From Cliona cf. orientalis (taxonomy: Eukaryota; Porifera; Demospongiae; Clionaida; Clionaidae), in NCBI GenBank assembly GCA_963930775.1, contig OZ005696.1, forward strand, positions 7,936,001 to 8,000,000: 64,000 nt of DNA, given 5' to 3'. The notes beneath the pieces were generated by a model, which was not told the DNA's origin, ran no database searches, and worked only from the letters and a program-made list of their open reading frames with translations. A program made the translations under genes and the position numbers. Positions 7,118-53,007 of this stretch are shown piece after piece (within the stretch, counting starts at the first letter, position 1; each line of letters opens with the position of its first letter).

Positions 7118-7645
7118 ATGTCAATCTGTACCATCACTGTGCTGCTGGCAACGTTAACAGTGCTGTGTGCTGTGCTAATGACAGCCAAGGCCTGTCCACT
7201 ACCCTCAAACTACAAACAAGATCAAGAATGCCAAGCTTACAATGACGCTAAAGCTGCAACCAGCCCAGTGTACCTCAACGTCACTGCAACACTGAGCGAC
7301 TTCACAAACACCCCTGACGAATTCAACCAAAAACTTGGTACAGATTATGAAACTGACGGCACTCCAGATGAAGAAGAATTTATAGGAAGACAAGCTTGCT
7401 ACAAATTGAGCAATCAAGAAATAGGCTGCAGAGAGAAAATTGAAGTTGAAGGAGCTTGCTCCTGGGACTACCAGTGCGACTATGATCAGAATAGGCTCCC
7501 ACTATACATATGGAGAGCATCTTGCAGCAGTGAATCACAGAACATCTACTACCCTGTCCCAGTGCTGAAGCGCAGAGATGCCTGCAACCCACAACCAACA
7601 TGGCAGATAGTCATGGAGAAGGTTCCTGTGGGATGCAAATGCTAA
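7118..7645 (+). CDS. IL-17-like secreted cytokine, copy 1
   Basis: This is an uninterrupted 175-aa frame. Residues 1-25 form a hydrophobic signal peptide (class I, MSICTITVLLATL) with likely cleavage after TAKA. The C-terminal half carries the IL-17 family signatures: CSWDYQCDYDQNRLP (114-127), IWRASC (131-136), PVPVLKRRDAC (146-156) and KVPVGCKC (168-175). These match the CPW, IWEAKC, VLRR..C and VSVGCTC landmarks of animal IL-17. The known family acts as secreted disulfide-linked dimers on IL-17 receptors. The usual NC cysteine at residue 32 is Tyr here, so ten rather than eleven mature cysteines remain. NVT (54-56) is a potential N-glycosylation site. The start is fixed by the TATA box and by alignment with the other copies. 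Confidence 0.8.
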   Translation: MSICTITVLLATLTVLCAVLMTAKACPLPSNYKQDQECQAYNDAKAATSPVYLNVTATLSDFTNTPDEFNQKLGTDYETDGTPDEEEFIGRQACYKLSNQEIGCREKIEVEGACSWDYQCDYDQNRLPLYIWRASCSSESQNIYYPVPVLKRRDACNPQPTWQIVMEKVPVGCKC

Positions 7646-8090
7646 GGATAAAATTTCACACTAAACCCAAACCCAAACCTATAGCATTAGTCCCATAGCA
7701 AAAAACAGAGCTGCTGCATTCTATGTAATAGCTGCATAGCTACTATTGAACAATCACTCAGAAAAAATTAATATTATAGTTTCTGTATTAATTCTTGTAG
7801 TTTTGTATACAAATGCCATGCAGACTATACCCAGTACTTGTATTTCTAAACCATAAGCTGCCATCCCATTCTAGAAACATTGTGTTAGATATAATTAATT
7901 TTTATATTTATAATATAATATCGTAGAGGTTCATTGCTATGGACTTAAATGAGATAGAGTTGTTTAGCTTAGCATAGCATACTTTTCATTAAACTTCATC
8001 GATTGGACGTTTCGGTCCGTGGACCTTCGTCAGCAATAAAAACAGATACACGTTACACGTAAATAAATATGAAATATTGGGGGGTGTGGT

Positions 8091-8396
8091 CTATCGAGTG
8101 CGCATGCTCCATGTATCACTGAGCGTCAGCCCACAGTCCAGATTACACGTTTGGGGGGTCTTCTGAATCCAGATCGCCTCCAAGACACGTCTCTTCCATT
8201 GGTGTGGCTCAGTTTCCATGACCTCTGCTGCATCCCAGTCAGGTTGGTGACTCATGTCCCATGCATGAACTGCGATACCATTCTTTCTGTTGTTGGTTTT
8301 AACTGCATATTTGTGCTCGGTGATTCTCTTCTGCAGGGTTCTTCCTGTTTCACCTATGTAGCTGGTTTCACAGTCTCGACAGGGGATCTTGTACAT
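8091..8396 (-). pseudogene. Penelope-like element GIY-YIG endonuclease fragment (left arm)
   Basis: The - strand encodes about 100 residues: YKIPCRDCETSYIGETGRTL, then a KRITEHK motif. This is the GIY-YIG endonuclease typical of the C-terminus of Penelope-like reverse transcriptases. It duplicates the 3' part of the + strand ORF at 13145-13588 in inverted orientation and lacks any upstream reverse transcriptase domain, so it cannot work alone. Confidence 0.75.
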
Positions 8397-8490
8397 ATCG
8401 AAACATGCCTATGGAACAGTTAAGATCAGTAGCGCGCATGAGCGCGTGCAATAATTGATGAATACGTCATTTTCTTAAAATTTTTTATGG

Positions 8491-9189
8491 GTGATGACGT
8501 CACATATGCAGGTATCCATGGTGCCGGTTGATATGATGGAAGCTGGAGCTGAAAGAAGGCCTGGACTACGTCCAGCTCATCGCGTGAACTACAAAAAGCT
8601 GTCTGAACTAAAACTACCGAAAGCGTCTAGATCAAGGCCGTCAACAGTAGACCAAGAGCATCTCTACCCTGTGGAGATAGTCGAAGAAGATTCTCTGCGT
8701 TATAAGGTGCACTACGTGGGATATAGTCGATCGTTTGACGAGTGGAAATCGAAAGAAGAGATCGTAGCGCTTGGAGAAGACGCGGATGAAGACACAGGTG
8801 GTGTAGAACTTGTTCCTAACTCTGAGCGTTTCATGCTGTATAATGAGCTTGCAATACGGATAAAAACCTCATTAAATAGTCACAGAAAGTTATCTCCAGT
8901 AGTGAGAATCGATATGCCATTCGATCGTATTGAATTTGATGGTGGATTACGTATCTCTGGGAAAGAAAAAAGATCTATTCATGGAGTACAGCGATGCTAC
9001 ATCATGCGCAGTCCAAAAGCAGCCAGTGGTACCGATCAGAGAACACTTCAGCAAGCCAGAGGTCGATTAAAGTCTGTTTCAGGAGAATTTCAGCATAAAT
9101 TGGAGAGCAGCTGGCCTCTGATATACCATAGCACAATTTCAGGATCTAAACAGATTATTAGGAGTAAATTGGCATTTCAGAGGCATTAA
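8491..9189 (+). CDS. Chromo/Tudor-knot-like protein of a mobile element, probably truncated
   Basis: The frame gives 232 aa. Residues about 53-92 (YPVEIVEEDSLRYKVHYVGY, then SFDEWKSKEEIV) look like a chromo-barrel or Tudor-knot fold, which binds modified histone tails in other proteins. After the stop, a shifted frame continues with sensible coding text to about 9400 (LYHRRPLKEFMP), so the gene seems frameshifted. The chromo-like segment is present again, inverted, at 12095-12215. It lies head-on to the transposase-like gene at 9687-11935 and may be its partner ORF. I do not recognise the family. Confidence 0.45.
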   Translation: MMTSHMQVSMVPVDMMEAGAERRPGLRPAHRVNYKKLSELKLPKASRSRPSTVDQEHLYPVEIVEEDSLRYKVHYVGYSRSFDEWKSKEEIVALGEDADEDTGGVELVPNSERFMLYNELAIRIKTSLNSHRKLSPVVRIDMPFDRIEFDGGLRISGKEKRSIHGVQRCYIMRSPKAASGTDQRTLQQARGRLKSVSGEFQHKLESSWPLIYHSTISGSKQIIRSKLAFQRH

Positions 9190-9580
9190 TGCTAATGGAG
9201 ACTTTTGCTATGTTATTCGTAACACAGTAGAATATTACCTCTACCATCGGCGACCTTTAAAAGAGTTTATGCCATCAATAGGAGAAGGATCTAGCCCTAT
9301 TAAGTTACGGGATACTAGCTATATGCTAGTGTTTACGTTTGTGAGGGGAGATGGGACCTCCGACAAATTTGGAACTGACCCTCAAATATTTGTGAACTAA
9401 CTTGAATACAATATGAAAACTTGAGTATAATATTGTGAACTTGAATACATAATGTATATATACACACTTCAAGGATAAAATGTTTATCATAATTATACGT
9501 AATCTTATATTAATTTTATGGTACACATAATGCACAATGTAAGGACACCATGCAAGTGTGCTTTATTTGAAATACGTACA

Positions 9581-9725
9581 TGTGTAACAGTGTGCTTTAT
9601 TCAGAAATAATCGAAGTCATATCGGATTTTCGTGTCCAGGTGCTAGTACATATGTAACAGTGTGCTTTATTCAGAAATAATCAAAGTCATATCGGATTTT
9701 CGAATTCGTGTCCAGGTGCTAGTTC
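9581..9725. repeat. Two-copy 70-bp tandem repeat
   Basis: The unit starts TGTGTAACAGTGTGCTTTAT and is repeated once from 9651 with a few changes. It overlaps the 3' end of the - strand ORF that ends at 9687. Confidence 0.7.
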
Positions 9726-11935
9726 TCGAAGTGGGGAACGAGATGGGCAGGTGCGTCGATTATGATCAACTTTTCCACACACACTACACGTTTGTTGCCG
9801 TATATTGCGTTTGAATCCATCGTCCTCAAGTTCTTCGATGCGGTTTCGCTTTTCCATTACTTGCTTCAGTGCAGCCACGTCATGATGATTGGTAGCACGT
9901 AAGAAGTGCTGGGTTGTCAGATCATTCAGTTTTTCCAATCCTTGTTGATTAAACTTGCATACACTGCCATACTGCTCAATAAACTCAGGAACATGGAATG
10001 CAAATGCATGGACATATGGGGTTATGTTCTTCGTCTGATAAACTTTAAGAAAGTTTCTCACCCAATTTTTTATGTCCTCCTGTAATTCCCTAGTATCAAT
10101 GTCAGTCTTTCCGAGTTCATTGAATAGACGCCAAAATTCGATCCATATGTCTTGTAGCAATGCACCATGTTGTAGTGCCGGAAAAAACTTAGGTATATCA
10201 ATATTCTTAAATAGACGTATTTTTTCCGGACCAGTGAGATCCCTCCACTTCATCTGTTTCGTTTCCTGTGATGTGTACCACCTAAAGTGTATTTTGCACA
10301 CAGTGTTCAAGAAGGTTTCGTACGACGTAACATTATTGTGTTTTTCTCTATTTAGAGCAGCATTTGCTATACCATCCTCCCTGCGTAGATCTTGAATGAG
10401 AAGATTGATAAGTAAATCAGACACATGAAGAAATAGATGGAGGGTGTCAATAATCACGTGGTCTATTGGAATGAATTTAAAGATTGGGACTTTACAACAA
10501 CTAAAACATTTGGACTTTGATAATTTGCAGTGTTTTTCGATTTCGTCCGTGGTCCTTGCTCCTTTTGACGCATCGAAAGCCGACCAATCCTTGCTCATAT
10601 CCCACCTATCACCGCTGGCACACTTGCACCAAATACAGGCATACTTCGCATTTGCTGCCTCAATTCCACACACTATAGCAAGGAATTTGAGATCACCTCC
10701 CAAAAAGTATTCGATATTATGCTCCTTTCCTTTAATTTCAATCGATTGTAGTTCGCTAGCTTCTTTTACAATATCTGAGAGCGACGTTGCAAGAGCATTG
10801 TAGTCTTCTGGTCCCTGTAGTATTGCAAGAGAATGGTTTCCAATGGTGAACTAGCAATGGATTCTTCGTTAAGCAAGGTAAATGCAAAGTTTACAACATG
10901 TATACTCTTCGCAATATTAGTTCCATCACCAGTCAGCTTAATTTGAATTATCTCTCCATCCTTGAGGCTCAGGGCTCCTAATCGTACTAACAACCTAGCT
11001 TTAAGACTTTGCTGGACACCAATTGTCCCACTAGGAGAGGATAAAATTTCAAATTGCGAGTTCATATCCTTCGTTAGTTCCTTCAGTTTATACAAACGTG
11101 GAAGATCTGTTGTGAGTTGACTTATCTCACGGTATGTAGCATCAGAAAGGGAAAATTTGTCCTTACAGTATAGGGCAAAATGGGTCATGTCGTGATCAGT
11201 CATAGCACTAGTGCTGCATTGCTTTCTCGTGAATGTACCTTTATCCAAGTCAATTGTTTCATGCTTTCCTGTTTCAATATTTTTGACTTCTACAGACACT
11301 GGACTAAAACATTTTGTGTCACAGGCTGAGAGTGCTGCCTGGACTCCTGAAATTAAATTTTTGCGCATTACACTCTGATGTGGTCGGCTATATTCGGACC
11401 ATCTTTTGGATGACGTCCCACGCCCTTGCTTAGATTGTCCCGTCTTTAGTGATACTATTGTTGCAGCCTGATCTTGGGATACTTTCTTTAGTGACTTCAG
11501 TTCATACTTAAGTGAGGATGCAACGGATTCAATCTTTTGCCTCTTTGATACTTCATGTTGAAGCTGATTTTCCACTTGTCGCTTACGACTAATGAGCTGC
11601 CTGCTCACTTCACGAGGATCAATAGTGAATGACCATACTGTTTCTTCCCACTTCTGTAATAGTTCATGGCGCTGAGTTCCTCCAAGGCCAGATATGGATT
11701 TACCGAGTCGCCAAAGCTTACTTTTGAACGTAGTTCTGATATTATCGGATATTTCAAGAGGTATGGCATATCGTGTAAATACCTTTGTGATCACACGTTC
11801 TTCAGCAAGTTGTCGTTCAGTGAATGAGTGACTGCTTCCTATTTGAGCTTCAGTATCCTTTGATAGATCAACTGTTGGCATTCCATGTTTATCAGGGTGG
11901 GAAATGGAATACAAAAAGTAGCTGTTGTGTATCAC
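9687..11935 (-). pseudogene. Transposase-like protein with one frameshift, family not recognised
   Basis: Two - strand frames (11935-10766, 389 aa, and 10703-9687, 338 aa) join into one protein across a frame break near 10820; the second frame is open upstream to the break. The N-terminal half has a coiled-coil-like Lys/Gln/Glu-rich part. Later come GDGTNI, a CIWCKC Cys pair, IIDTLHLFLH, FHVPEFIEQYGS and NQQGLEKLND. A C-terminal CSVCGKVDHNRRTC knuckle follows. The spacing of acidic residues (GDGT, DTLH, QGLE) recalls the D-D-E layout of Transib/RAG1-type RNase H-like transposases, but this is only by eye. The frame break makes it inactive unless it is a sequence error. Confidence 0.5.
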
Positions 11936-12094
11936 GGTATGAATGGATCGCGTGTACGTGTGTGCCAGGGAGGGGGAGAGGGAGAGAGAGGTAATTTATA
12001 TGGTTCTTTTGTACTGTGTATATTAAAATAATATAAATTTACTTGTTAATTGGGTATGATTCCATCACCGTATCCAATCGTATTAAATATGATT

Positions 12095-12215
12095 TCTTCT
12101 TTCGACTTCCACTCGTCAAACGATCGACTATATCCCACGTAGTGCACCTTATAACGCAGAGAATCTTCTTCGACTATCTCCACAGGGTAGAGATGCTCTT
12201 GCACCTTCGCAGCTG
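12095..12215 (-). repeat. Inverted copy of the chromo-like segment
   Basis: It matches about 8655-8775 in reverse complement. Together with the Penelope arms this makes the insertion partly palindromic. Confidence 0.65.
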
Positions 12216-12226
12216 CTTCGCTGATG

Positions 12227-12320
12227 GAACTCGACTACCATGCCCCCGCATATACGCACTGATAAAATAGAATTAACTAGAACTCGACTACCATGCCCCC
12301 GCATATACGTACTGATGTAA
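12227..12320. repeat. Two-copy direct repeat of 53-bp period
   Basis: GAACTCGACTACCATGCCCC occurs at 12227 and again at 12280, each followed by the same GCATATACG tail. The next stretch, to about 12750, holds no gene I can support. Confidence 0.6.
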
Positions 12321-12753
12321 CAAAAGCGGATATTAATGTTGGACTTTATTACACTTGTTTGGTATCAGGAGGATGTGACGCTCATGCTTATGACACAGCA
12401 GAGCGAACTGGAGGAAAACCCCTTACGAAACTCGAGAAATATTGATATTTAGAACATGACTTAATTATGTCCATAATAGTGATAGTACAGAAAAGGTCAA
12501 AGTGCTCCTACTAAAGCAGCAAATAGCGTTGTGTTCTTGACCAGCGATGGGTGCAAGAGACCTCCATATTGTAGCGAAGGCGTAGAAGAAGGTATGTAAC
12601 TGCGAACTACATAAGAATTGAACTGTAGAGACCTGCAATAAAGAAAAATATCACAAAATATGACGATTTTTGGACAGCTCTTCATAGGCTTGTATAGTCG
12701 TTATCGATCTTGTAATATACCTTGTATATTGTAATTATCTAGTATAGCAAATC

Positions 12754-13119
12754 TTACACTGTGGTTTGATATGATACTACTCCTTTCTTCATCAATTCTG
12801 GTGTCTTGATCTTTACTCTGGTCAATACACTCCGTAGGGTTCCACTCGACTTGAGGTTTCGTGAGATGATATGTTTTGGGTATCCATTCTTCAGGAATGT
12901 ATCTCGGATGTATAACAGTTCTTCCTTCTTGTTGTCATCCTGGCATATCCTCCTTGCTCGTTTCGTCAGGCATCGGATCGTTCCAGATTTCACTCGCGGG
13001 TGGTGGTGTGATGTAAAGTGGGTGTATCCACCAAAACATGTCATCTCACGAAACCTCAAGAAGAAAGAAAGATGACAGGAGACAACACATGACGCAGAGG
13101 AGACCGACGGATCCACCAA
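12754..13119 (-). pseudogene. Penelope-like reverse transcriptase fragment
   Basis: The - strand text includes THFTSHHHPRVKSGTIRCLT, then LKNGYPKHIISRNLKSSG. This is typical of the segment between the reverse transcriptase and GIY-YIG domains of Penelope-like elements. It is followed on the opposite strand by the rest of the element, so the copy has been internally inverted. Confidence 0.65.
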
Positions 13120-13144
13120 ACAACCAAGCCTATTCCTACCCTAT

Positions 13145-13588
13145 GTGCAGGGACTATCTGAGAAGATTCAGATTGAGTGCCGCAAGTTGAATGTTAGAAC
13201 AATCTTCAAGTCGAGTGGAACCCTACGGAGTGTATTGACCAGAGTAAAGATCAAGACACCAGAATTGATGAAGAAAGGAGTAGTATACAAGATCCCCTGT
13301 CGAGACTGTGAAACCAGCTACATAGGTGAAACAGGAAGAACCCTGCAGAAGAGAATCACCGAGCACAAATATGCAGTTAAAACCAACAACAGAAAGAATG
13401 GTATCGCAGTTCATGCATGGGACATGGGTCACCAACCTGACTGGGATGCAGCAGAGGTCATGGAAACTGAGCCACACCAATGGAAGAGACGTGTCTTGGA
13501 GGCGATCTGGATTCAGAAGACCCCCCAAACGTGTAATCTGGACTGTGGGCTGACGCTCAGTGATACATGGAGTATGCGCACTCGATAG
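13145..13588 (+). pseudogene. Penelope-like element C-terminus with GIY-YIG domain (right arm)
   Basis: The 147-aa frame begins at GLSEKIQIECRKLN and runs through FKSSGTLRSVLTRVK to YIGETGRTLQKRITEHK. The GIY-YIG endonuclease nicks DNA for target-primed reverse transcription. The reverse transcriptase core is missing, so this is a 5'-truncated copy. Confidence 0.7.
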
Positions 13589-13923
13589 ACCACACCCCCC
13601 AATATTTCATATTTATTTACGTGTAACGTGTATCTGTTTTTATTGCTGACGAAGGTCCACGGACCGAAACGTCCAATCGATGAAGTTTAGTGAAAAGTAT
13701 GCTATGCTAAGCTAAACAACTCTATCTCATAATAATATAATTATTATATTGGTGATTGCAATTAGTACAGCTACAATTGCAAGTTTTCACAGACAAGCAG
13801 CATCTATGAAATGTACGTACGTACGTACATTTCTCTACAAAGCAGCACAAGATACTGTGTAGGAAGGAGGAGAAAAGAGGGCCTGGTACCTATTGCACGC
13901 GCATGTGCCAACTACCCCAAGAA

Positions 13924-14674: not shown

Positions 14675-17224
14675 CAGGGTTTCATCCAGTGGGGGGGACA
14701 GGGGGGAAGCTTCCCCCCCAAACCTCCAAGCTTCCCCCCCCCTAAAATTTTTGATCATAATCTAATTAATACCATGAATAATATTATTATTGTAATAAAA
14801 ATGTGTTACTACAGTAATGTCAGTTTATATTACTAATCGTCTAGGTTTCTGCTGTTTCCAATTTCTTACAATTGAATCAAGTTCTTCATCTGATAGAGTA
14901 GGTGAACCCTCAATACATAGTCTAAGAGTTTGGTCGAGGGTATCTTCTCCCAATCTGCTTCGTAGTCGAGTTTTTGTCAGTTTCATATCACTGAAGCTTC
15001 TCTCAACAGTTGATGTTGTAACTGGCAGAACGAGGGAGAGTGATGCTAACCGTACAAGATTAGGAAAACCAGCACACAGTGTAGGATTTGTCAGGAGATT
15101 ACTTGTTACATTCTCTAAACCTGTACTCCTAAATTGGACAAACATGACTCTTCGAAATATCTTCCATTCAGCTTCAGCTTGCTCTGCAACGACATCAGGT
15201 TGTGAGACTCCAGTTTTATCCTCGTACATTGCACGCTGCTCCTTACCATAAAAATCGGTCAATTTTTTTAGTGTCTCCACACCATATGTAGCTAGTTCCT
15301 CTTCCTTCTCTGGTAAGTGTCGAGGATCAAAAATAGAAAAAGCAGATATAAGATCACTGGAGTTAAGCAGATGAAATACGATCAATAACACTTTGTATGT
15401 ACGGACGATAAATATGCATGATAAATTGTTCTTCTTGTTCATCTGAAATATCAATATTTCGTTCTCCAAGTAGGTTAGAGTCAGTAAAAACATTTCTGTG
15501 ATCTTTGAACCATGTAGTAGACGAAGGATTTTCTTTCAATTCAATTAGTCTAGATAGTGTACTATCAACCAACACTGGTACTGATGCCAAGTCTAGCTCC
15601 TTGGCTTGTAGACTTGCTTGAAGTTTAGCAACAGTGTGGAGGATGTCACATAACATATACAAACATGCAACAAATTTGTATGTACATAAAAGCCTCGACA
15701 ACCCATATGCCTCAGCATCGCCATTTTCCTCATAGAGTTCCTCAAACGTACGAACAAGAGCAGGTAAGCATTGCCTAACGGAACGAACACACCGCTCCCT
15801 TGCCAACCATCTTGTGTCACTGGGTTTAGTGACTTTCAATTCTGGAGAATTGAGAATTGCTTGAATTTCAATCAACTTTTCGGCTTTTTTAGGTGAATAA
15901 TGAAAAGTTTTCCACATGGTCAAAAGTGTACCAAACACTTTACTAACTTCCCTGTGATCATGGGCAGCATTTACTGCTGCCAGTTGAAGTCGATGGCAGT
16001 GACAGTGAATGTAGAGAGAACTGGGAGCATGACATTTCATTCTCATTTGTACACCACTCCTACAGCCAGACATTGTGCTAGCACCATCAAATCCTAAACC
16101 ACGCAATCTCTTCAGATCAATACCTTTAGTATGTAAGAATTGTAGAAGAGCTTCAGTTATGCTCCTAGCATCCACTTGTTTTATGTGAACCATCCCCAAA
16201 AAATGTTCGACAGGTTTTCCTATTTCCAGCCATCTTCCACAAATCGAAAGCTCCTCTTTAGAGGCAATATCTGTACTTTCATCTGCCAAAATTGAAAAAT
16301 ATGGACTCTCTTTTAATCTGCTGAGTAATTTCTCTTCAATGTGATCACTTATGCTTCTTAGTAGCTCAGCAGTTGTCATTTTAGAGAGATAAGTTGCATT
16401 GTTGGGGCATGAATTCAAGTGTACTTTAAGCTGCTCATTTCCATTTTCAATTTGCAATGTTATCAAATCTTGAAATGTTGTAGTATGTGGTATACGATGT
16501 TTAACTAGAAAGTATAGTGACCTGATTAACTTTATTATCATTGCACGATTTTTTCGTTTCTCTTCCTCACTTGCACTGCGCATCTGTTCTATTATGTCTC
16601 CCTGTTTCTTTGCCATTTCAGCCATTGCACTAGATTCAACTGATGCTCTGTGCCAGTCAGATTTTTCATGTTTTGTGAGAAGCTCAGTAGCTTTCACCCA
16701 ATTGCAAATAGGCCGAGTAACCCACGCACCATGAGCTTGGGTGGGAGGCTTTCCAAACCGTTTGCAAAGAGAGCACAACATCCCCTCTCCAGCATCATCA
16801 TATTCAATCCAGGGCCATTTCGATCGCCATTCAGGGTTATATCGCAGCTTACTCTTGTAGGTTTTCATTCGTGAACTAGCATCACTGCTAGAACTGGCAC
16901 CAGAATCATTACTATCTCCTGTAGTAGCCTGGGAATTGCAAGTTCTCTTAGCAGAGGGTGTAGCAGACTCATCAGAATTATCGTTGCAACTTTCTGATGA
17001 TGACCGTCGAAGTTTAGTCCTGATTACAAATTTATCCATCTTGATTGGCTACATGTATACAGCTAGCTAGCTAGGCTAGTTGTAGCCTAGCTAGCTAGCT
17101 ACCACGTGGCATGTGCTTTAATTAGAAATGCTAGGTGTATGGTAATGGTCGACAGCATCGCAAGTTCCCTGAAGTTTCAATGTCAAGCTTCCCCCCCAAA
17201 AATTTTGGGCTGGATGAAACCCTG
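14675..17224 (-). mobile_element. hAT DNA transposon, 2.55 kb
   Basis: Perfect 15-bp terminal inverted repeats CAGGGTTTCATCCAG lie at 14675-14689 and 17210-17224. CATAG flanks both sides (14670-14674 and 17225-17229), a 5-bp target duplication; hAT elements more often make 8 bp, but groups with 5 bp are known. The element sits at the very start of element X copy 3. It carries one transposase gene on the - strand. Confidence 0.75.
14825..17039 (-). pseudogene. hAT transposase (TTF/ZNF862-like type) with one frameshift
   Basis: The first frame (17039-15363, 558 aa) has a Cys/His zinc finger (CSLCKRFG ... LLTKHEKSDWH), the first catalytic acidic motif ILADESTDIASKEE, then RGLGFDGASTMSG and SDTRWLARERC. 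The second frame (15493-14825) supplies FDPRHLPEKEEEL and the C-terminal dimerisation region VTTSTVERSFSDMKLTKTRL. The frames shift near 15365-15375, just after VIDRISS. The protein would excise and reinsert the element. With the frame break it is probably inactive, although a base-call error would look the same. Confidence 0.7.
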
Positions 17225-22875: not shown

Positions 22876-23393
22876 ATGTCAATCTGTACCATCACTGTGC
22901 TGCTGGCAACGTTAACAGTGCTGTGTGCTGTGCTAATGACAGCCAAGGCCTGTCCACTACCCTCAAACTGCAAACAAGATCAAGAATGCCAAGCTTACAA
23001 TGACGCTAAAGCTGCAACCAGCCCAACGTCACTGCAACACTGAGCGACTTCACAAACACCCCTGACGAATTCAACCAAAAACTTGGTACAGATTATGAAA
23101 CTGACGGCACTCCAGATGAAGAAGGATTTATAGGAAGACAAGCTTGCTACAAATTGAGCAATCAAGAAGTAGGCTGCAGAGAGAAAATTGAAGTTGGAGG
23201 AGCTTGCTCCTGGGACTACCAGTGCGACTATGATCAGAATAGGTTCCCCCTATACATGTGGAGAGCATCTTGCAGCAGTGAATCACAGACCATCTACTAC
23301 CCTGTCCCAGTGCTGAAGCGCAGAGATGCCTGCAACCCACAACCAACATGGCAGCTAGTCATGGAGAAGGTTCCTGTGGGATGCAAATGCTAA
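22876..23393 (+). pseudogene. IL-17-like cytokine, copy 2, broken by a 10-bp deletion
   Basis: Class I signal peptide and N-terminus as in copy 1, but with the NC cysteine intact. At about 23025 ten bases present in copy 1 are missing, which shifts the frame and gives a stop at 23041-23043 after 55 residues. The rest of the gene is still recognisable to the VGCKC stop at 23391-23393. The predicted product lacks the whole cystine-knot region. A 10-bp loss is harder to explain as a base-call slip than a single-base change. Confidence 0.8.
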
Positions 23394-29952: not shown

Positions 29953-29960
29953 TATAAAAA
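29953..29960 (+). promoter_or_regulatory. TATA box of IL-17 copy 4
   Basis: TATAAAAA, about 105 bp before the ATG, class I context. Confidence 0.65.
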
Positions 29961-32675: not shown

Positions 32676-32682
32676 TATAAAA
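32676..32682 (+). promoter_or_regulatory. TATA box of IL-17 copy 5
   Basis: TATAAAA in the class III context GAGGATATAAAAGCAGAG, 98 bp before the ATG. Confidence 0.65.
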
Positions 32683-32779: not shown

Positions 32780-33271
32780 ATGGCTACACAAATCATCACC
32801 ACTCTGGCTCTGCTGGCTCCACTTCCAAACTGCACACGAGATCAAGAATGCCAAGCCTACATCAATGCCAAAGCTGCCATCAGCCCAGTGTACCTCACTG
32901 TCAATGCAACACTGAGTGACTTCACAAACGCTCCTGACGAATTCAACCAAAAACTTGGTACAGATTATCAACTCAACAGCATTCCAGATGAAGAAGGGTT
33001 CATAGGAAGACAGGCTTGCTACAAATTGAGCGGACAAGAAGTAGGCTGCAGAGATATATTTGAAGTTGACAGAGCTTGCTCCTGGGACTACCAGTGCGAC
33101 TACGATCAGAAAAGGCTCCCCCTATACATATGGAGAGCATCTTGCAGCAGTGAATCACAGACCATCTACTACCCTGTCCCAGTGCTGAAGCGCAGAGATG
33201 CCTGCAACCTACAACCAACATGGCAGCTAGTCATGGAGAAGGTACCCATGGGGTGCAAATGCCATGGATAA
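32780..33271 (+). CDS. IL-17-like cytokine, copy 5, shortened signal peptide
   Basis: Open 163-aa frame. The start is class III (MATQIITTLALL), but the 12-13 codons that elsewhere hold VTTKLAANAAC are missing, so the hydrophobic core joins APLPNC directly. The first mature cysteine and the usual cleavage site are lost, leaving ten cysteines. The knot half is intact, ending KVPMGCKCHG. A receptor-binding role is inferred from the family. Whether it is secreted normally is uncertain. Copy 13 has the same shortening. Confidence 0.75.
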   Translation: MATQIITTLALLAPLPNCTRDQECQAYINAKAAISPVYLTVNATLSDFTNAPDEFNQKLGTDYQLNSIPDEEGFIGRQACYKLSGQEVGCRDIFEVDRACSWDYQCDYDQKRLPLYIWRASCSSESQTIYYPVPVLKRRDACNLQPTWQLVMEKVPMGCKCHG

Positions 33272-34691: not shown

Positions 34692-34699
34692 TATAAAAA
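34692..34699 (+). promoter_or_regulatory. TATA box of IL-17 copy 6
   Basis: TATAAAAA in the class III context, about 103 bp before the first ATG. Confidence 0.65.
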
Positions 34700-34801: not shown

Positions 34802-35323
34802 ATGATGGCTACACGGATCATCATCACTCTAGCTCTGCTGCTGGTCACAACTAAATTTGCGGCCAATGCTGCGTGCATTCCATTTCCAAGAAACTGCACA
34901 CGAGATCAAGAATGCCAAGCCTACAATGACGCCAAAGCTGCACCCAGCCCAGTGTACCTCAACGTCAACGCAACACTGAGTAACTTCACCAACACTCCTG
35001 ACGAATTCAACCAAAAACTTGGTACAGATTATGAAACTAACGGCCTACTAAATATAACAGGGCAAGCTTGCTACAAATTGAGCAACCAAGAAGTAGGCTG
35101 CAGAGAGAAAATTGAAGTTAAAGGAGCTTGCCCCTGGGACTACCAGTGCGACTACGATCAGAACAGGCTCCCCCTGTACATATGGAGAGCATCTTGCAGC
35201 AGTAAATCACAGACCATCTACTACACTGTCCCAGTGCTGAAGCGCAGAGATGCCTGCAACCCACAACCAACATGGCAGCTAGTCATGGAGAAGGTTCCTG
35301 TGGGATGCAAATGCTCAGGATAA
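34802..35323 (+). CDS. IL-17-like secreted cytokine, copy 6
   Basis: Open 173-aa frame with a complete class III signal peptide (MMATRIIITLALLLVTTKFA, likely cleaved before ACIPF). Two in-frame ATGs are adjacent; the first is used here. The middle segment is GLLNITGQACYK, replacing PDEEGFIGRQACYK, so NIT adds a potential N-glycosylation site in that loop. The Ser of CSW is Pro (CPW), which is the residue usual in IL-17 of other animals. It ends VGCKCSG, two residues longer than class I. All eleven mature cysteines are present. Confidence 0.82.
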   Translation: MMATRIIITLALLLVTTKFAANAACIPFPRNCTRDQECQAYNDAKAAPSPVYLNVNATLSNFTNTPDEFNQKLGTDYETNGLLNITGQACYKLSNQEVGCREKIEVKGACPWDYQCDYDQNRLPLYIWRASCSSKSQTIYYTVPVLKRRDACNPQPTWQLVMEKVPVGCKCSG

Positions 35324-36270: not shown

Positions 36271-36430
36271 TACAGTGTAATCATTATTCCGTATATAAAC
36301 AACCACTACAAGTCATGTACGATTGCACAGTGCAATACACAATAACACTATACGTAAAGCAGAGTAAATCAGTGAAGCTGATCACAGTCAAAAGCAAGAA
36401 AACTTTTCTTCAAGTAACCATAAGAAAGTA

Positions 36431-36961
36431 ATGATCTATCAATCGATTCATACGACCACTGTGCTGCTGGGCACAATGCTGTGTGCCCTGCTGATCACAG
36501 CCAAAGTCTGTCTACTACCCTCAAACTGCATACAAGATCAAGAATGCCAAGCCTACAATGACGCTAAAGCTGCAACCAGCCCAGTGTACCTCAACGTCAA
36601 TGCAACACTGAGCGACTTCACAAACACCCCTGACGAATTCAACCAAAAACTTGGCACAGATTATGAAACTGACGGCATTCCAGATGAAGAAGGGTTTATA
36701 GGAAGACAAGCTTGCTACAAATTGAGCAACCAAGAAGTAGGCGGCAGAGAGAAAATTGAAGTTGAAGGAGCTTGCTCCTGGGACTACCAGTGCGACTACG
36801 ATCAGAATAGGCTCCCCCTATACATATGGAGAGCATCTTGCAGCAGTGAATCACAGACCATCTACTACCCTGTCCCAGTGCTGAAGCGCAGAGATGCCTG
36901 CAACCCACAGCAAACATGGCAGCTAGTCATGGAGAAGGTCCCTGTGGGATGTAAATGCTAG
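36431..36961 (+). CDS. IL-17-like secreted cytokine, copy 7
   Basis: Open 176-aa frame with class II signal peptide (MIYQSIHTTTVLLGTMLCAL). The normal TATA box is replaced by a weak TATACGTAAAG at about 36349, and a SINE lies just upstream, so expression may differ. In the segment before the knot, VGCREKIE has become VGGREKIE, removing one conserved cysteine and leaving ten. The remaining landmarks IWRASC, PVPVLKRRDAC and KVPVGCKC are intact. AATAAA lies immediately after the TAG stop. Confidence 0.8.
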   Translation: MIYQSIHTTTVLLGTMLCALLITAKVCLLPSNCIQDQECQAYNDAKAATSPVYLNVNATLSDFTNTPDEFNQKLGTDYETDGIPDEEGFIGRQACYKLSNQEVGGREKIEVEGACSWDYQCDYDQNRLPLYIWRASCSSESQTIYYPVPVLKRRDACNPQQTWQLVMEKVPVGCKC

Positions 36962-39835: not shown

Positions 39836-39955
39836 TAACTTCAACTCAGATACAAGCCGGAATTTCTTTCTTACAATATGATCATTATTCTGCAATATAC
39901 AAGTCATATACAATTAATTGCACAATGCAATACTCAAGAGCCACTTGTCAAACAC

Positions 39956-39963
39956 TATATAAA
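39956..39963 (+). promoter_or_regulatory. TATA box of IL-17 copy 8
   Basis: TATATAAA in the context CACTATATAAACATG, 67 bp before the ATG chosen. Confidence 0.55.
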
Positions 39964-40029
39964 CATGAAGTTGATCACAGTCAAAGCAAGAAAACTTTTC
40001 TTTCAAGCAATCATCAAACTGAGAAAGTA

Positions 40030-40551
40030 ATGATCTACCAATCAATTCATATGACCACTGTGCTGCTGGGCACAGTGCTGTGTGCCCTACTGATCACAGC
40101 CAAGGCCTGTCCACTAGCCCCTAACTGCACACGAGATGAAGAATGCGAGGCCTATAATGACGCTAAAGCTGCAACCAGACCAGTGTACCTCAACGTCAAT
40201 GGTACACTAAGCGACTTCACCAACACACCGAACAAATTCAATCAAAAACTTGGTACAGACTATGAACTCGACGGCATGCCAAATATAACCGGGCAAGCTT
40301 GCTATAAAGAATCCAACCAAGAAGTAGGCTGTAAAGAGCTTATGGAAGTTGAAGGAGCAGCTTGCTCCTGGACATACCAGTGCGACTACGATCAGAATAG
40401 GCTCCCCCTATACACGTGGAGAGCATCTTGCAGCAATGAATCACAGACAATCTACTACCCTGTCCCAGTGCTGAAGCGCAGAGATGCCTGCAACCCACAG
40501 CAAACATGGCAGCTAGTCATGGAGAAGGTTCCTGTGGGATGCAAATGCTAG
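40030..40551 (+). CDS. IL-17-like secreted cytokine, copy 8
   Basis: The frame is open from 39925, but the ATG at 40030 is chosen because it aligns with the class II starts (MIYQSIHMTTVLLGTVLCAL) and lies after the TATA box; this gives 173 aa. It carries the short middle with a glycosylation site (MPNITGQACYK) and the KELMEVEGAACSWTYQCD version of the pre-knot segment also seen in copy 4. All eleven mature cysteines are present. The knot half is canonical, ending KVPVGCKC. AATAAA lies just after the TAG stop. Confidence 0.82.
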   Translation: MIYQSIHMTTVLLGTVLCALLITAKACPLAPNCTRDEECEAYNDAKAATRPVYLNVNGTLSDFTNTPNKFNQKLGTDYELDGMPNITGQACYKESNQEVGCKELMEVEGAACSWTYQCDYDQNRLPLYTWRASCSNESQTIYYPVPVLKRRDACNPQQTWQLVMEKVPVGCKC

Positions 40552-40989: not shown

Positions 40990-41150
40990 TTAGTGTGTGG
41001 GCTCCTTGGAGAAGGTCCCTGTGGGATGTAAATGCTAGGAATAAACCTGAGCCCAGTGCTGAAGCGCAGAGATGACTGCAACCCACAGCAAACATGGCAG
41101 CTTTATTAGTCATGGAGAAGGTCCCTGTGGGATGTAAATGCTAGGAATAA
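40990..41150 (+). pseudogene. Two IL-17 3'-end remnants in tandem
   Basis: GAGAAGGTCCCTGTGGGATG with a TAG stop occurs at about 41009-41040. A second piece, from CCAGTGCTGAAGCGCAGAGA to another GGATGTAAATGCTAG, spans 41053-41140 and has an internal TTTATTAG insertion. No upstream part of the gene remains. Confidence 0.7.
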
Positions 41151-43460: not shown

Positions 43461-43467
43461 TATAAAA
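43461..43467 (+). promoter_or_regulatory. TATA box of IL-17 copy 9
   Basis: TATAAAA after GCTGAAGGCTCA, 101 bp before the ATG. Confidence 0.65.
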
Positions 43468-45542: not shown

Positions 45543-46078
45543 ATGGTCAATCGATCGATTTATATCACTTCTGTGCTGATGGGCACAGCACTGTGTGCTG
45601 TGCTAACGACAGCCAAGGCCTGTCCACTACCCTCTAACTGCACACGAGATCAAGAATGCCAAGCCTACAATGACACTAAAGCTGCCACCAGCCCAGTGTA
45701 CCTCAATGTCAATGCAACACTGAGCGACTTCACAAACACTCCTGATAAATTCAACCAAAAACTTGGTACAGATTATGAAACTGACAGCACTCCAGATGAA
45801 GAAGATTTTATAGCAAGACAAGCTTGCTACAAAAACTCCAACCAAGATGTAGGCTGCAGAGAGAAAATTGAAGTTGAAGGAGGAAATTGCTCCTGGAATT
45901 ACCAGTGCAACTACAATCAGAACAGGCTCCCCCTGTACATATGGAGAGCATCTTGCAGCAGTGAATCACAGACCATCTATACTACCCTGTCCCAGTGCTG
46001 AAGCGCAGAGATGCCTGCAACCCACAACCAACATGGCAGCTAGTCATGGAGAAGGTTCCTGTGGGATGCAAATGCTAG
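45543..46078 (+). pseudogene. IL-17-like cytokine, copy 10, frameshifted in the knot
   Basis: Class II signal peptide (MVNRSIYITSVLMGTALCAV). Two extra bases (TA, about 45979-45982) after the codons for SQTIY shift the frame, so the open frame ends at 46001 (152 aa) with TTLSQC in place of the PVPVLKRRDAC ... VGCKC tail. The ancestral stop is still visible at 46076-46078. The N-terminal part is otherwise intact, with changes such as GGNCSWNYQCNYNQNR that add glycosylation sites. The product would lack the last three knot cysteines. Confidence 0.75.
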
Positions 46079-48101: not shown

Positions 48102-48108
48102 TATAAAA
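48102..48108 (+). promoter_or_regulatory. TATA box of IL-17 copy 11
   Basis: TATAAAA in the class III context, 119 bp before the ATG. Confidence 0.65.
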
Positions 48109-48226: not shown

Positions 48227-48751
48227 ATGATGGCTACACAAATCATCACCACTCTAGCTCTGCTGCTGGTCACAACTAAACTTGCGGCCAATGCTGCGTG
48301 CATTCCATTTTCAAGTAACTGCATACGAAATCAAGAATGCCAAGCCTACAATGATGCCAAAGCTGCCACCAGCCCAGTCTACCTCAACGTCAATATAACA
48401 CTGAGCGACTTCACAAACACTCCTGATGAATTTAACCAAAAACTTGGTACAGATTATGAAACTGACGGCACTCCAGATGAAGAAGGAAGACAAGCTTGCT
48501 ACAAAAACTTCAACCAAAAAGTAGGCTGCAGAGAGATAATTAAAGTTGAAGGAGCTTGCTCCTGGGACTACCAGTGCGACTATGATCAGAATAGGCTCCC
48601 CCTATACATATGGAGAGCATCTTGCAGCAGTGAATCACAGACCATCTACTACCCTGTCCCAGTGCTGAAGCGCAGAGATGCCTGCAACCCACAACAAACA
48701 TGGCAGCTAGTCATGGAGAAGGTACCCGTGGGGTGCAAATGCCAAGGATAA
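48227..48751 (+). CDS. IL-17-like secreted cytokine, copy 11
   Basis: Open 174-aa frame with a full class III signal peptide (MMATQIITTLALLLVTTKLA). The middle is PDEEGRQACYKNFNQKVGC; three residues (FIG) are missing compared with most copies. Eleven mature cysteines, ending VGCKCQG. Copy 12 follows as a tandem unit of about 1.35 kb with a nearly identical promoter and signal peptide, so these two are recent duplicates, yet their middles differ. Confidence 0.82.
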   Translation: MMATQIITTLALLLVTTKLAANAACIPFSSNCIRNQECQAYNDAKAATSPVYLNVNITLSDFTNTPDEFNQKLGTDYETDGTPDEEGRQACYKNFNQKVGCREIIKVEGACSWDYQCDYDQNRLPLYIWRASCSSESQTIYYPVPVLKRRDACNPQQTWQLVMEKVPVGCKCQG

Positions 48752-49450: not shown

Positions 49451-49457
49451 TATAAAA
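49451..49457 (+). promoter_or_regulatory. TATA box of IL-17 copy 12
   Basis: TATAAAA in the class III context, 119 bp before the ATG. Confidence 0.65.
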
Positions 49458-49575: not shown

Positions 49576-50109
49576 ATGATGGCTACACAAATCATCACCA
49601 CTCTAGCTCTGCTGCTGGTCACAACTAAACTTGCGGCCAATGCTGCATGCATTCCATTTCCAAGTAACTGCATACAAGCTCAAGAATGCCAAGCCTACAA
49701 TGACGCTAAAGCTGCCACCAGCCCAGTGTACCTCAACGTCAATATAACACTGAGTAACTTCACAAATACACCTGACGAATTTAACCAAAAACTTGGTACA
49801 GACTATGAAACTGACATAATTCCAGATAAAGAAGGGTTTATAGGAAGACAAGCTTGCTATAAATTGAGCAACCAAGAAGTAGGCTGTACAGAGCTTATGG
49901 AAGTTGACAAAGCTTGCTCCTGGAACTATCAGTGTGACTACGATCAGAACAGGCTCCCCCTATACATATGGAAAGCATCTTGCAGCAGTGAATCACAGAC
50001 CATCTACTACCCTGTCCCAGTGCTGAAGCGCAGAGATGCCTGCAACCCACAACCAACATGGCAGCTAGTCATGGAGAAGGTCCCTGTGGGATGTAAATGC
50101 AAGAAGTAA
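49576..50109 (+). CDS. IL-17-like secreted cytokine, copy 12
   Basis: Open 177-aa frame with a class III signal peptide. The pre-knot segment GCTELMEVDKACSWNYQCD is the TELMEV variant, and the middle is IPDKEGFIGRQACYK, both closer to copy 4 than to its tandem neighbour copy 11. It ends VGCKCKK. Eleven mature cysteines and potential N-glycosylation at NIT. The 3' flank from 50110 is shared with copies 4 and 7-like flanks, not with copy 11. Confidence 0.82.
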   Translation: MMATQIITTLALLLVTTKLAANAACIPFPSNCIQAQECQAYNDAKAATSPVYLNVNITLSNFTNTPDEFNQKLGTDYETDIIPDKEGFIGRQACYKLSNQEVGCTELMEVDKACSWNYQCDYDQNRLPLYIWKASCSSESQTIYYPVPVLKRRDACNPQPTWQLVMEKVPVGCKCKK

Positions 50110-50267: not shown

Positions 50268-50470
50268 ATGGGGCGAGCCTGAGCGAGCCCCGAATACACG
50301 AGAGACAGGAAGCGGTTTTATATGTATGTATATATTCTTGTATGTTTGTGGGGTGATCATTTCAGTGAGGAGAGAGTTAAATTTTGAACGTGTTAGGTTA
50401 TCAGGGTTTCATACAGGATTTTTTGTTAGGGGGAAACTATGTGTCGGTACCTCCCCCCCCCCCCCAAGGA
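50268..50470. mobile_element. Left part of foldback element F
   Basis: It matches 30753-30955 and lacks the right arm; a MITE follows at 50584. Confidence 0.55.
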
Positions 50471-50583
50471 ATAAAGTAAGTTTTTGAATTGCATCTTAGG
50501 CCTATTTTGATCAAAAATCAGTGCTGATAGACTGTGGTTGACAAATACATACCCACTAAGTAAGTGTGAAATTAGTACATATA

Positions 50584-50769
50584 CCGTAAATCGCGAATAT
50601 TTCATGTCTAAAATATTTCATGTGATAAATTTTCATGTTAAATAATTTTCGGACAAACGACCCTGTACCGCATTATCGTTAATATTGCGTATGTATTTCG
50701 TGCATTTAATTTTCGCACAAGCCAGGCTGTCCGAAAATATTTTAACAACGAAATATTCGCGATTTACGG
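50584..50769. mobile_element. 186-bp TA-target MITE, second copy
   Basis: Same family and ends as 18774-18959, TA on both sides. Confidence 0.75.
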
Positions 50770-50899
50770 TAGATTAAGACTTTTCCAAATCGAGCACAGA
50801 CTCGGTATTAGACATTTTCAAACAGTCAAACCGACGAATCACTCTTTATTGGCTTTTAGCATAATAGTATTATAATAATAGCACCTTGCTATTACAATA

Positions 50900-51565
50900 T
50901 GTGACCGTCCATGACAAAACCAACCATATTATTGCGCTGGATATCAATCTGAGATACAGGCCTATTTAGTTGCCCAAGGTGATAATTATCATTTTTCACT
51001 TTTTGGCATAGATCGATAGAGGAAACATTCCTCTACACAAAAATCTGCTTCGTAGCTTCTAGAACGCTATACTTACTGAGTTATGGCTTGAAGAAGTCAG
51101 CCGTGTAGCTAACATTGATCGTCCATGATACGGAGCCGTTGCCATAGTTGCAGGTAGGCAAGCACGGCAGCTGCACAGAAAAAACTCTCCAGACACTTCT
51201 TTCTTCGATTATGTGCACTAACGATCTTTTCGTTCTTTTCCATCGAAACGCCGGCCGCTGCTTTCTTTCCAATGTTTTGGCCGCCATCTGGCTCTTTGAC
51301 TTAGTGGGCGTGGCCACGTATTTTGCATAAACGGCGAGTATACGGACTTCCGCGTGCAACGTACGTAGCAATGTTTCATTGAGCTTGCTGTACATTTTTA
51401 TTACGGGCGATCCGGGTACATTTTGGCTCATATCTCCATGACTACACGGGCTAGAGACTTCAAATTTGCAGGAGCAATAGTTCAAAGGTTGTACTTGGTA
51501 ATGGTGGCCTTAACTAAAAATCGGTTGTCAGCGCAATATGGTTGGTTTTGTCATGGAAGGTCACA
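50900..51565. mobile_element. 666-bp inverted-repeat element, TA target
   Basis: Ends TGTGACCGTCCATGACAAAA and complement; TA on both sides. The equivalent spacer before copy 5 has the empty site (ACCATATATTTC near 31783). A - strand ORF of 134 aa (51485-51081) is not recognisable and is broken in the related copy at 53378-54056. Confidence 0.7.
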
Positions 51566-51589
51566 TATATTTCTATAGTAATTTTATGC

Positions 51590-51915
51590 TATTAGCACAG
51601 CGGTGCTATTTATGCTAATACACACCACCTTTTGCTATTTTGCTACTAATTTTGTAGTTAGTCTAAGGAGGCGAGCTATTTGCTATTTTACAGTTATGGT
51701 CTTAGAAGTCACTCAATTTTGCTATTAATGCTATTTTGCTATTTTGTAGTTAGTGTTAGGTGGTGTGCTAGTTTGCTATTAATGCTATTTTGCTACCTTA
51801 AGTTAGTTAATCTAAGGAGGCGAGCTATTTTGCTATTTATGCTATTATGCTATTTTAGTTAGTCTAAGAAGCCGTGCTATTTTGTTATCTATACATTTTG
51901 CTACTTTCAATAGCA
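51590..51915. repeat. CTATTTTGC minisatellite, second copy
   Basis: Shares units with 31790-32230, with fewer repeats. Confidence 0.65.
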
Positions 51916-52414
51916 AAATAGCATCAAACCAAGAAAGCCAGTGATGCTAGCGTTACAGTATACTGCACGTAAGTGCAAGCACTACCAGCTGGGCAGGCGC
52001 GCAATCTCCCACAGCAAGCATACGAAATTAAAGAAATATGAATATTTATTCTAAGGGTGTTTTGGTCAATCATCCAAAAATTAGCACCAACGAAAATTTC
52101 CCACTATAATATGGTATATAGCCAAATTGCTCCAGATTGGAGGCCACAGACTCCCATAATAATATGTGACCTGCTATAAGAAAAGGTACCATTCATGGTA
52201 GTATGAAACGCGACCAATTTTTATCACAATAGTCGCCGACTTGCTTTCTACAGATGTACGTAGTAGTGAGTATACTTGTACATGGAGCGGATGCACCTAC
52301 AGTACATTATTACAATGTCATGTATTGTATACTCACTATTATAATAAGCTACACAAACACAGAGTCCTTTTTCTCACAGCTGGTCATACATGCACCTACC
52401 AGAGTGAAAGAGGA

Positions 52415-52421
52415 TATAAAA
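52415..52421 (+). promoter_or_regulatory. TATA box of IL-17 copy 13
   Basis: TATAAAA in the class III context, 101 bp before the ATG chosen. Confidence 0.65.
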
Positions 52422-52521
52422 GCAGAGTAGAAGGCTGTAACTACTAAACAACTCGAAGAGGACAGACGTGATACTATCACTACTCGGATCAAGTCAAAAT
52501 CTTTCAAGTAAAAACAAGGCT

Positions 52522-53007
52522 ATGGCTACACAAATCATCACCACTCTGGCTCTGCTGCTTCCACTTCCAAACTGCACACGAGATGAAGTGTGCCAAGCCT
52601 ACAATGACGCTAAAGCTGCACCCAGCCCAGTGTACCTCACAGTTAATGCAACACTGAGCGACTTCACAAACACACCGGACGAATTCAACCAAAAAATTGG
52701 CACAGATTATGACACTGACAGCACTCCAGATGAAGAAGGGTTTATAGGAAGACAAGCTTGCTACAAACCGAGTAACCAGGAAGTAGGCTGCAGAGAGAAA
52801 ATTGAAGTTGAAGGAGCTTGCTCCTGGGACTACCATTGCGACTACGATCAGAACAGGCTCCCCCTGTACATATGGAGAGCATCTTGCAGCAGTGAATCAC
52901 AGAACATCTACTACCCTGTCCCAGTGCTGAAGCGCAGAGATGCCTGCAGCCTACAACCAACATGGCAGCTAGTCATGGAGAAGGTCCCTGTGGGATGCAA
53001 ATGCTAA
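52522..53007 (+). CDS. IL-17-like cytokine, copy 13, shortened signal peptide
   Basis: The frame is open from 52468, but the ATG at 52522 aligns with copy 5 and gives 161 aa (MATQIITTLALLLPLPNC). As in copy 5, the VTTKLAANAAC part is gone, along with one cysteine, and the hydrophobic stretch has no clear cleavage site. If the ATG at 52468 were used, an 18-residue extension would precede it. The knot half is intact (DYHCDYDQNRLP, IWRASC, KVPVGCKC). This is the last gene of the array and lies 215 bp from the last recognised vigilin exon on the other strand. Confidence 0.75.
   Translation: MATQIITTLALLLPLPNCTRDEVCQAYNDAKAAPSPVYLTVNATLSDFTNTPDEFNQKIGTDYDTDSTPDEEGFIGRQACYKPSNQEVGCREKIEVEGACSWDYHCDYDQNRLPLYIWRASCSSESQNIYYPVPVLKRRDACSLQPTWQLVMEKVPVGCKC

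What the first reader, a model, noticed from the sequence alone, without database searches (positions are those of the whole stretch)
7118..53007. A 13-member tandem array of IL-17-like cytokine genes in a probable early-branching animal
All copies carry the IL-17 landmarks (CxWxYQCDYD, NRxPxxIWxAxC, PVLxRxxxC, VGCxC) after a signal peptide, each in a single exon. IL-17 is established in vertebrates and several invertebrate groups; a cluster this dense, in what may be a sponge, would bear on the origin of cytokine signalling and on lineage-specific expansion.
Basis: partly seen in the sequence, partly recalled or inferred. Interest (0 to 1): 0.92.

Follow-up and report, generated by a model that had tools for sequence, protein, structure and literature searches.

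The report
Giant IL-17 gene array in sponge
A coral-reef sponge carries dozens of tandem, single-exon genes for IL-17-type immune messenger proteins, plus candidate receptor and adaptor genes, in a phylum where two published surveys had found none.

Summary
Confirmed, and larger than described. The window holds 13 IL-17 copies (10 intact, 3 frameshifted), all on the + strand, plus one 66-bp fragment. PF06083 passes Pfam's cut-off in 12 of 13; a sponge-built profile matches 25 PDB sequences, all IL-17A, IL-17F or IL-25. Contig and mtDNA lengths match the demosponge Cliona cf. orientalis, chromosome 8. The window is part of a gap-free 227-kb array of 54 pieces: 36 intact, 10 split over two frames, 8 fragments. 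Seven more intact IL-17 genes lie elsewhere: 43 in all, against a maximum of 36 in the one comparative table I read. The coding region is an island of conservation in scrambled flanks; 34 of 36 intact copies have a TATA box upstream. Copies are recombinant mosaics; most of the protein is under purifying selection, one segment is hypervariable. The genome also has transmembrane SEFIR genes, SEFIR/Death genes and an NF-kB-type gene. Best reading: an expanded repertoire of secreted IL-17 ligands acting through SEFIR receptors. Fold, expression and function are untested. IL-17 and tandem IL-17 arrays are known in other animals; phylum, scale and mosaic hypervariability are the news.

The parts
7118..7645 (+). 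IL-17 gene, intact (175 aa)
   Evidence: PF06083 45.3 bits; TATA box at 7007
22876..23390 (+). IL-17 copy split over two frames
   Evidence: two profile pieces; second piece PF06083 47.7 bits
26828..27356 (+). IL-17 copy split over two frames
   Evidence: two profile pieces; second piece PF06083 45.2 bits
30060..30584 (+). IL-17 gene, intact (174 aa)
   Evidence: PF06083 43.4 bits; TATA box at 29953
32780..33271 (+). IL-17 gene, intact (163 aa), shortened leader
   Evidence: PF06083 43.1 bits; TATA box at 32676
34802..35323 (+). IL-17 gene, intact (173 aa)
   Evidence: PF06083 47.4 bits; TATA box at 34692
36431..36961 (+). IL-17 gene, intact (176 aa)
   Evidence: PF06083 45.8 bits; TATA-like match at 36292
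39925..40551 (+). IL-17 gene, intact; real start probably 40030 or 40051
   Evidence: PF06083 39.8 bits; TATA box at 39956, downstream of the ORF's first ATG
41041..41106 (+). small IL-17 fragment
   Evidence: profile positions 144-161, 28.2 bits
43568..44095 (+). IL-17 gene, intact (175 aa)
   Evidence: PF06083 44.6 bits; TATA box at 43461
45543..46075 (+). IL-17 copy split over two frames
   Evidence: two profile pieces; first piece PF06083 20.3 bits, below cut-off
48227..48751 (+). IL-17 gene, intact (174 aa)
   Evidence: PF06083 48.9 bits; TATA box at 48102
49576..50109 (+). IL-17 gene, intact (177 aa)
   Evidence: PF06083 46.5 bits; TATA box at 49451
52522..53007 (+). IL-17 gene, intact (161 aa), shortened leader
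   Evidence: PF06083 44.4 bits; TATA box at 52415

Best explanation
This is part of a 227-kb germline tandem array of IL-17-family cytokine genes on chromosome 8 of the demosponge Cliona cf. orientalis. Each intact gene is one coding exon behind its own TATA promoter and encodes a small Cys-rich protein that is probably secreted. Inferred steps: the proteins fold as IL-17 cystine-knot dimers, are released by epithelial or immune-type cells on microbial challenge, bind type-I receptors with a cytoplasmic SEFIR domain (candidate cluster on chromosome 18), recruit SEFIR/Death adaptors (chromosomes 10, 15, 17) and activate NF-kB (chromosome 19). Tandem duplication plus gene conversion shuffles segments among copies: most of the protein stays constrained while one segment in front of the W-containing strand diversifies, giving a repertoire of ligand variants. 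Shown here: family membership, species match, array size, selection pattern, mosaicism, TATA boxes, presence of SEFIR, Death and Rel-homology genes. Inferred: fold, secretion, expression, ligand-receptor pairing, immune role.
For: PF06083 in 12 of 13 window copies; profile A2 against the PDB: 25 of 25 matches at E<=1 are IL-17A/F/IL-25, best 1.2e-5. Species. Array: 36 intact, 10 split, 8 fragments in C8:7789019-8016329; 5 array-type singletons and 2 diverged genes elsewhere. CDS identity 0.72-0.95 against about 0.45 in the flanks; dN/dS 0.27 outside and 0.80 inside the hypervariable segment; recombination, 0 of 2000 permutations. TATA box in 34 of 36, resampled mean 5.3, maximum 12 of 500. SEFIR at 8 places; TM stretch upstream of SEFIR in 3 of 4 on C18; Death domain with SEFIR at 3 places. 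Rel homology exons on C19.
Against: A single protein gives only E 0.46 against human IL-17F, with bee phospholipase at 0.76-0.78 in the same list. One of the four cysteines that form the vertebrate knot (the L-G-C one) is missing in the array. Seven of 36 intact copies have a leader of only 12 residues. NF-kB-like sites are not enriched upstream: 2 seen, shuffled mean 2.9. The IL-17 receptor ectodomain profile PF16556 has no match, the two ectodomain pieces tried match no Pfam family, and the C18 SEFIR exons resemble no animal IL-17 receptor in the PDB. No expression or structural evidence.
Confidence: 0.78

Rival explanations
1. IL-17-derived but repurposed: the array proteins are abundant secreted effectors (antimicrobial, decoy or matrix proteins) that no longer signal, while the diverged chromosome 16 pair keeps the cytokine role.
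For: Large, fast-changing, mosaic Cys-rich secreted families are often effectors (recalled); one knot cysteine is missing; many array copies against few SEFIR transmembrane genes found.
Against: Purifying selection on the IL-17 core (dN/dS 0.27) and retention of the W-x-Y, N-R-x-P and V-G-C-x-C motifs; sea urchin has 35 IL-17 genes with only 2 receptors and still signals (PMC5457136, abstract and passages).
Confidence: 0.15
2. Mostly redundant birth-and-death: the array is a by-product of unequal crossing-over and few copies are expressed; copy number and variation have little function.
For: 10 copies split over two frames and 8 fragments among 54 pieces; dN/dS of the variable segment is 0.80 with an interval of 0.47-1.38, compatible with relaxed constraint.
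Against: 36 intact copies with dN/dS 0.27 outside the variable segment, pN<pS in 630 of 630 pairs there, conserved CDS in unalignable flanks, TATA box in 34 of 36.
Confidence: 0.25
3. Assembly artefact: copies inflated by haplotypes placed side by side (the genome is very heterozygous).
For: Primary k-mer completeness is 60.5% and curators removed 81 haplotypic duplications (PMC12639293, passages).
Against: No gap in 260 kb; longest self-match in the region 4.7 kb at 96.5%, no match of 500 bp or more at 98% or above; all 36 intact proteins differ.
Confidence: 0.03
4. Not IL-17 but another Cys-rich secreted family with a chance likeness.
For: Similarity to human IL-17F with a single protein is weak (E 0.46), and the fold is untested.
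Against: No other Pfam family passes its cut-off in the 13 window sequences scanned; 25 of 25 PDB profile matches are IL-17 family.
Confidence: 0.02

Closest known systems
Sea urchin SpIL17 family (PMC5457136; abstract and passages read)
   Same: Large IL-17 family with tandem clusters and pseudogenes; Cys at conserved vertebrate Ser positions; SEFIR receptors.
   Different: 35 genes in 10 subfamilies on nine scaffolds, largest cluster described 8 SpIL17-1 plus one gene in 59.8 kb, mostly conserved within echinoderms; here 36 intact copies of one subfamily in 227 kb, with mosaic exchange and one hypervariable segment.
Bivalve and octopus IL-17 expansions (PMC8353272; passages and section 13 read)
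   Same: Marine invertebrates with 24-36 IL-17 genes, often in tandem; CPW motif.
   Different: Two exons is the commonest structure in mussel; spread over many scaffolds; phylum Mollusca. That survey found none in the sponge Amphimedon, though it mentions one Pfam entry from it.
Vertebrate IL-17A/F and IL-25 (PDB)
   Same: W-x-Y strand, N-R-x-P, A-x-C, V-G-C-x-C, about 80 aligned residues.
   Different: Vertebrates have the L-G-C cysteine and a longer loop after A-x-C, and Ser where the sponge has Cys before S-W; the sponge has an extra Y-Q-C cysteine.
Placozoan and ctenophore SEFIR proteins (PMC6321704, PMC11797021; passages read)
   Same: SEFIR transmembrane and SEFIR-Death proteins (placozoan), SEFIR domains (two of three ctenophores) outside Bilateria.
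   Different: The passages read report no IL-17 ligand array with them; PMC4517768 (passages) found no IL-17 in Trichoplax.

Membership tests
IL-17 cytokine family | Match to Pfam PF06083 above the curated cut-off | tested here: met
   12 of 13 window sequences; 5 of the 7 intact genes elsewhere that were scanned: L001, L003, L041, L042, L045; six-frame matches above cut-off for the other two, C14 and C5
IL-17 cytokine family | Sequence relation to structurally solved IL-17s | tested here: met
   profile A2: 25 of 25 PDB matches at E<=1 are IL-17A, IL-17F or IL-25, best 1.2e-5; single protein only E 0.46
IL-17 cytokine family | Four knot cysteines (A-x-C, L-G-C, and the two of V-G-C-x-C) | tested here: inconclusive
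   three of four kept in nearly all of the 36 intact array copies; L-G-C absent from the array; a Cys near its place in one C16 gene, which lacks the last Cys. Extra Y-Q-C cysteine could substitute (inference)
IL-17 cytokine family | Cystine-knot fold | not testable with these tools
   structure prediction switched off
IL-17 cytokine family | Secretion signal | tested here: inconclusive
   hydrophobic leader of 19-26 residues in 29 of 36 intact copies, 12 residues in 7 of 36; no signal-peptide predictor on hand
IL-17 cytokine family | Signalling through SEFIR receptors | not tested
   candidate receptors exist; binding needs experiment
IL-17 receptor (C18 cluster) | SEFIR domain | tested here: met
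   four places on C18 above cut-off; L010, L013, L016 ORFs confirmed in hmmscan
IL-17 receptor (C18 cluster) | Transmembrane stretch before SEFIR | tested here: met
   hydropathy in L010, L011, L016, in L016 within the SEFIR ORF; not found in the stretch held for L013
IL-17 receptor (C18 cluster) | FnIII-type IL-17 receptor ectodomain | tested here: inconclusive
   PF16556 no match, but it rang in no control genome either; a W-T-P-P-containing ORF piece in L046 matches no Pfam family
Demosponge, Cliona cf. orientalis | mtDNA with atp9 and a large tRNA set; chromosome and mtDNA lengths of odCliOrie1.1 | tested here: met
   atp9, 26 predicted tRNAs (that these mark demosponges is recalled). C5, C8, C10, C14, C15, C16, C17, C18 and the 19,633-bp mtDNA match Table 3 after rounding. 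Held genome 149 contigs, 216.79 Mb; paper 307 scaffolds, 217.17 Mb

The most novel reading that the evidence does not exclude
The array is a recombination-driven cytokine repertoire: gene conversion among dozens of single-exon IL-17 genes keeps generating new combinations of the hypervariable segment, so that individual sponges carry different sets of IL-17 ligands, matched to a co-expanded SEFIR receptor cluster, to regulate microbes or dinoflagellate symbionts or to recognise non-self. If so, both IL-17 signalling and repertoire-type diversity at the cytokine level reach back to sponges.
Probability: 0.25. Interest if true: 0.92.

Novelty: new member of a known kind. Interest (0 to 1): 0.74.

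Why it matters
Two published surveys place the origin of IL-17 in nematodes (PMC4517768) or cnidarians (PMC8353272), having found none in the sponge Amphimedon. A sponge genome with 43 intact IL-17 genes, transmembrane SEFIR genes, SEFIR/Death genes and a Rel-homology gene suggests that the ligand-receptor axis already existed in the common ancestor of sponges and other animals, or was gained early in sponges. It is also a testable case in which a cytokine, rather than a recognition receptor, is the hypervariable expanded family, in a reef sponge whose genome paper reports Symbiodiniaceae sequences in the sample (PMC12639293).

Tried and rejected
Structure prediction on A1 was not accepted because the tool is off for all sessions, so no fold search was run. 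18S rRNA as a species marker: the machine gave no answer twice; mtDNA and contig lengths were used instead. IL-17 receptor ectodomain profile PF16556: no match, uninformative. NF-kB-like sites upstream: 2 in 36 x 400 bp, shuffled mean 2.9, not enriched. Poly(A) signals: 13 of 36 (background 0.26), 12 of these 13 only 1 bp after the stop codon, so not convincing. Relatives in IMG/VR and in GTDB genomes: 81 and 71 stretches matched a pattern, none confirmed, so no sign of a viral or bacterial source in those collections. Physical distance does not predict divergence (rho -0.004). Haplotypic false duplication: considered and rejected. Other sponges could not be searched: no eukaryote collection is on hand. 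Cliona varians-Symbiodinium transcriptome paper PMC4144087: 0 occurrences of interleukin, cytokine, IL-17 or TRAF in the main text.

Literature: searches (listings; open-licence PMC only) showed no report of an IL-17 gene family in a sponge. PMC8353272 mentions one Pfam entry from Amphimedon that its authors could not find in the genome (passage). Two papers mention KEGG 'IL-17 signaling' in sponges (PMC8242945, PMC7882143; passages).
Full report
OBSERVATION. ORFs of at least 100 aa were listed in six frames. A profile from the ten intact window proteins finds 13 full-length copies plus one 66-bp fragment in the window, all on +. Ten are intact; three (22876, 26828, 45543) are split over two frames. 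PF06083 is above its cut-off in 12 of 13 sequences scanned, with E-values of 6e-10 to 8.7e-13 for the ten intact proteins.

SPECIES. The window is C8:7936001-8000000 of a 216.8-Mb genome. Cox1 lies on a 19,633-bp contig with in-frame TGA; that contig carries atp9 and 26 predicted tRNAs. The lengths of C5, C8, C10, C14, C15, C16, C17, C18 and of the mtDNA match Cliona cf. orientalis odCliOrie1.1 (PMC12639293, abstract in a listing and passages). Chromosome 8 is OZ005696.1. The held copy has fewer contigs than the paper (149 against 307) and 0.4 Mb less.

ARRAY. C8:7770001-8030000 was rebuilt without gaps. It holds 54 pieces from 7789019 to 8016329: 36 intact, 10 full-length but split over two frames, 8 fragments; 53 of 54 are on +. 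Median spacing of intact copies is 3.5 kb. All 36 intact proteins differ. The whole-genome protein search (68 matches from 70 scored candidates, a lower bound) adds five intact array-type singletons (C18:931537, C14:1589678, C5:10961872, C8:4971117, C8:3277132), a copy on C13 in two pieces, and two diverged intact genes on C16 (36 and 27% identity to the first row of A2). Total intact: 43. The earlier Pfam search gave 49 matches, 42 of them in the array. The longest self-match in the 260 kb is 4.7 kb at 96.5%, and no match of 500 bp or more reaches 98%, so haplotypes laid side by side are unlikely.

EVOLUTION. Aligned on the stop codon, mean pairwise identity is 0.72-0.95 within the CDS and falls to about 0.45-0.55 within some 300 bases on either side; flanks are partly unalignable. 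The copies are therefore old and the coding part is held together. Mean dN/dS is 0.27 (codon bootstrap 0.17-0.41) outside and 0.80 (0.47-1.38) inside alignment columns 77-120, where 35 of 36 segments are distinct and lengths run from 36 to 43. pN exceeds pS in 237 of 630 pairs there and in 0 of 630 in the rest of the mature protein. Pairs are not independent, and the interval does not prove positive selection. Synonymous divergence falls from 5' to 3' (0.50 in the leader, 0.13 in the last part). Four-gamete incompatibility rises from 0.23 to 0.71 with distance, and 0 of 2000 permutations reach the observed value. Together this points to gene conversion making mosaics. Physical distance along the array does not predict divergence.

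PROMOTERS. TATAWAR occurs at -220 to -60 from the ATG in 34 of 36 intact copies (10 of 10 in the window), against a mean of 5.3 and maximum of 12 in 500 first-order resamplings, and in 0.10 of random 160-bp stretches of the region. Copies are related, so this is retention rather than 34 independent events. It argues that each copy is its own transcription unit without a distant first coding exon. NF-kB-like sites are not enriched.

PROTEIN. A profile of 15 sponge sequences (8 of the 10 intact window proteins and the 7 from elsewhere) matches 25 PDB sequences at E<=1, all IL-17. A single protein reaches only E 0.46. The array keeps W-x-Y, R-x-P, A-x-C and, with one or two exceptions, V-G-C-x-C. 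It has Cys before S-W, where the aligned vertebrate IL-17F has Ser; sea urchins also have Cys at conserved vertebrate Ser positions (PMC5457136, passages), and CPW is recurrent in invertebrates (PMC8353272, section 13). The L-G-C cysteine is missing and Y-Q-C is extra. One C16 gene has a Cys near the L-G-C place and lacks the last one, which hints at a changed disulphide; this is inference. Fold not tested.

PATHWAY. SEFIR matches at 8 places, at 25-35 bits against a cut-off of 23 in the ORFs scanned. C18 has four within 57 kb; L010, L011 and L016 have a TM-like stretch upstream, in L016 within the same ORF after a Ser/Thr-rich stalk. SEFIR and Death domains occur together in L015 (C15) in one ORF, and in neighbouring ORFs in L009 (C17) and L014 (C10); L012 (C15) shows SEFIR alone in the ORF scanned. 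Rel-homology exons lie on C19. The FnIII ectodomain is unproven, and the C18 SEFIR sequences do not reach an animal IL-17 receptor in the PDB. An array-type IL-17 gene lies about 200 kb from the C18 cluster.

COMPARISON. PMC4517768 (passages) and PMC8353272 (passages and section 13) found no IL-17 in Amphimedon; the latter's table peaks at 36 in Octopus and it mentions one Amphimedon Pfam entry. Sea urchin has 35, five of them probable pseudogenes or truncated (PMC5457136, passages). Tandem IL-17 arrays are therefore known; a sponge IL-17 family was not reported in the listings I saw. Counting methods differ, so 43 against 36 is only a rough comparison.

VERDICT. Observation confirmed; interpretation supported and extended. 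A known family in a new phylum at unusual scale, with mosaic hypervariability. Fold, expression and function remain to be tested.

Noticed in passing
83-1069 and 61630-62784 (+); also C8:7837171-7838325: Three near-identical (91-100%) single-ORF Fic-domain genes interspersed in the IL-17 array; in the window each is followed by an IL-17 copy of the same leader type (7118; 66456 beyond the window), pointing to a duplicated Fic/IL-17 block.
   Followed up: partly
7949-13730: Element-like block with 445-nt inverted repeats (99%) that each carry a GIY-YIG ORF (8091-8396 -, 13268-13588 +), enclosing ORFs without Pfam match; probably a mobile element inserted in the array.
   Followed up: partly
14825-17039 (-): hAT-type transposase remains: DUF4371 and hAT dimerisation domain in two ORFs.
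   Followed up: no
   Followed up: partly
L011 (C18:1188081-1191440), minus strand: The last part of the SEFIR exon is repeated several times head to tail downstream of the SEFIR gene.
   Followed up: no
C18:931537-932025 and C18:1133433-1189940: An array-type IL-17 gene about 200 kb from the cluster of SEFIR transmembrane genes on the same chromosome.
   Followed up: no
C111 (44,040 bp) of the same genome: A second contig carries cox1 with the same score and TGA count as the 19.6-kb mtDNA; perhaps an mtDNA concatemer or a nuclear copy.
   Followed up: no
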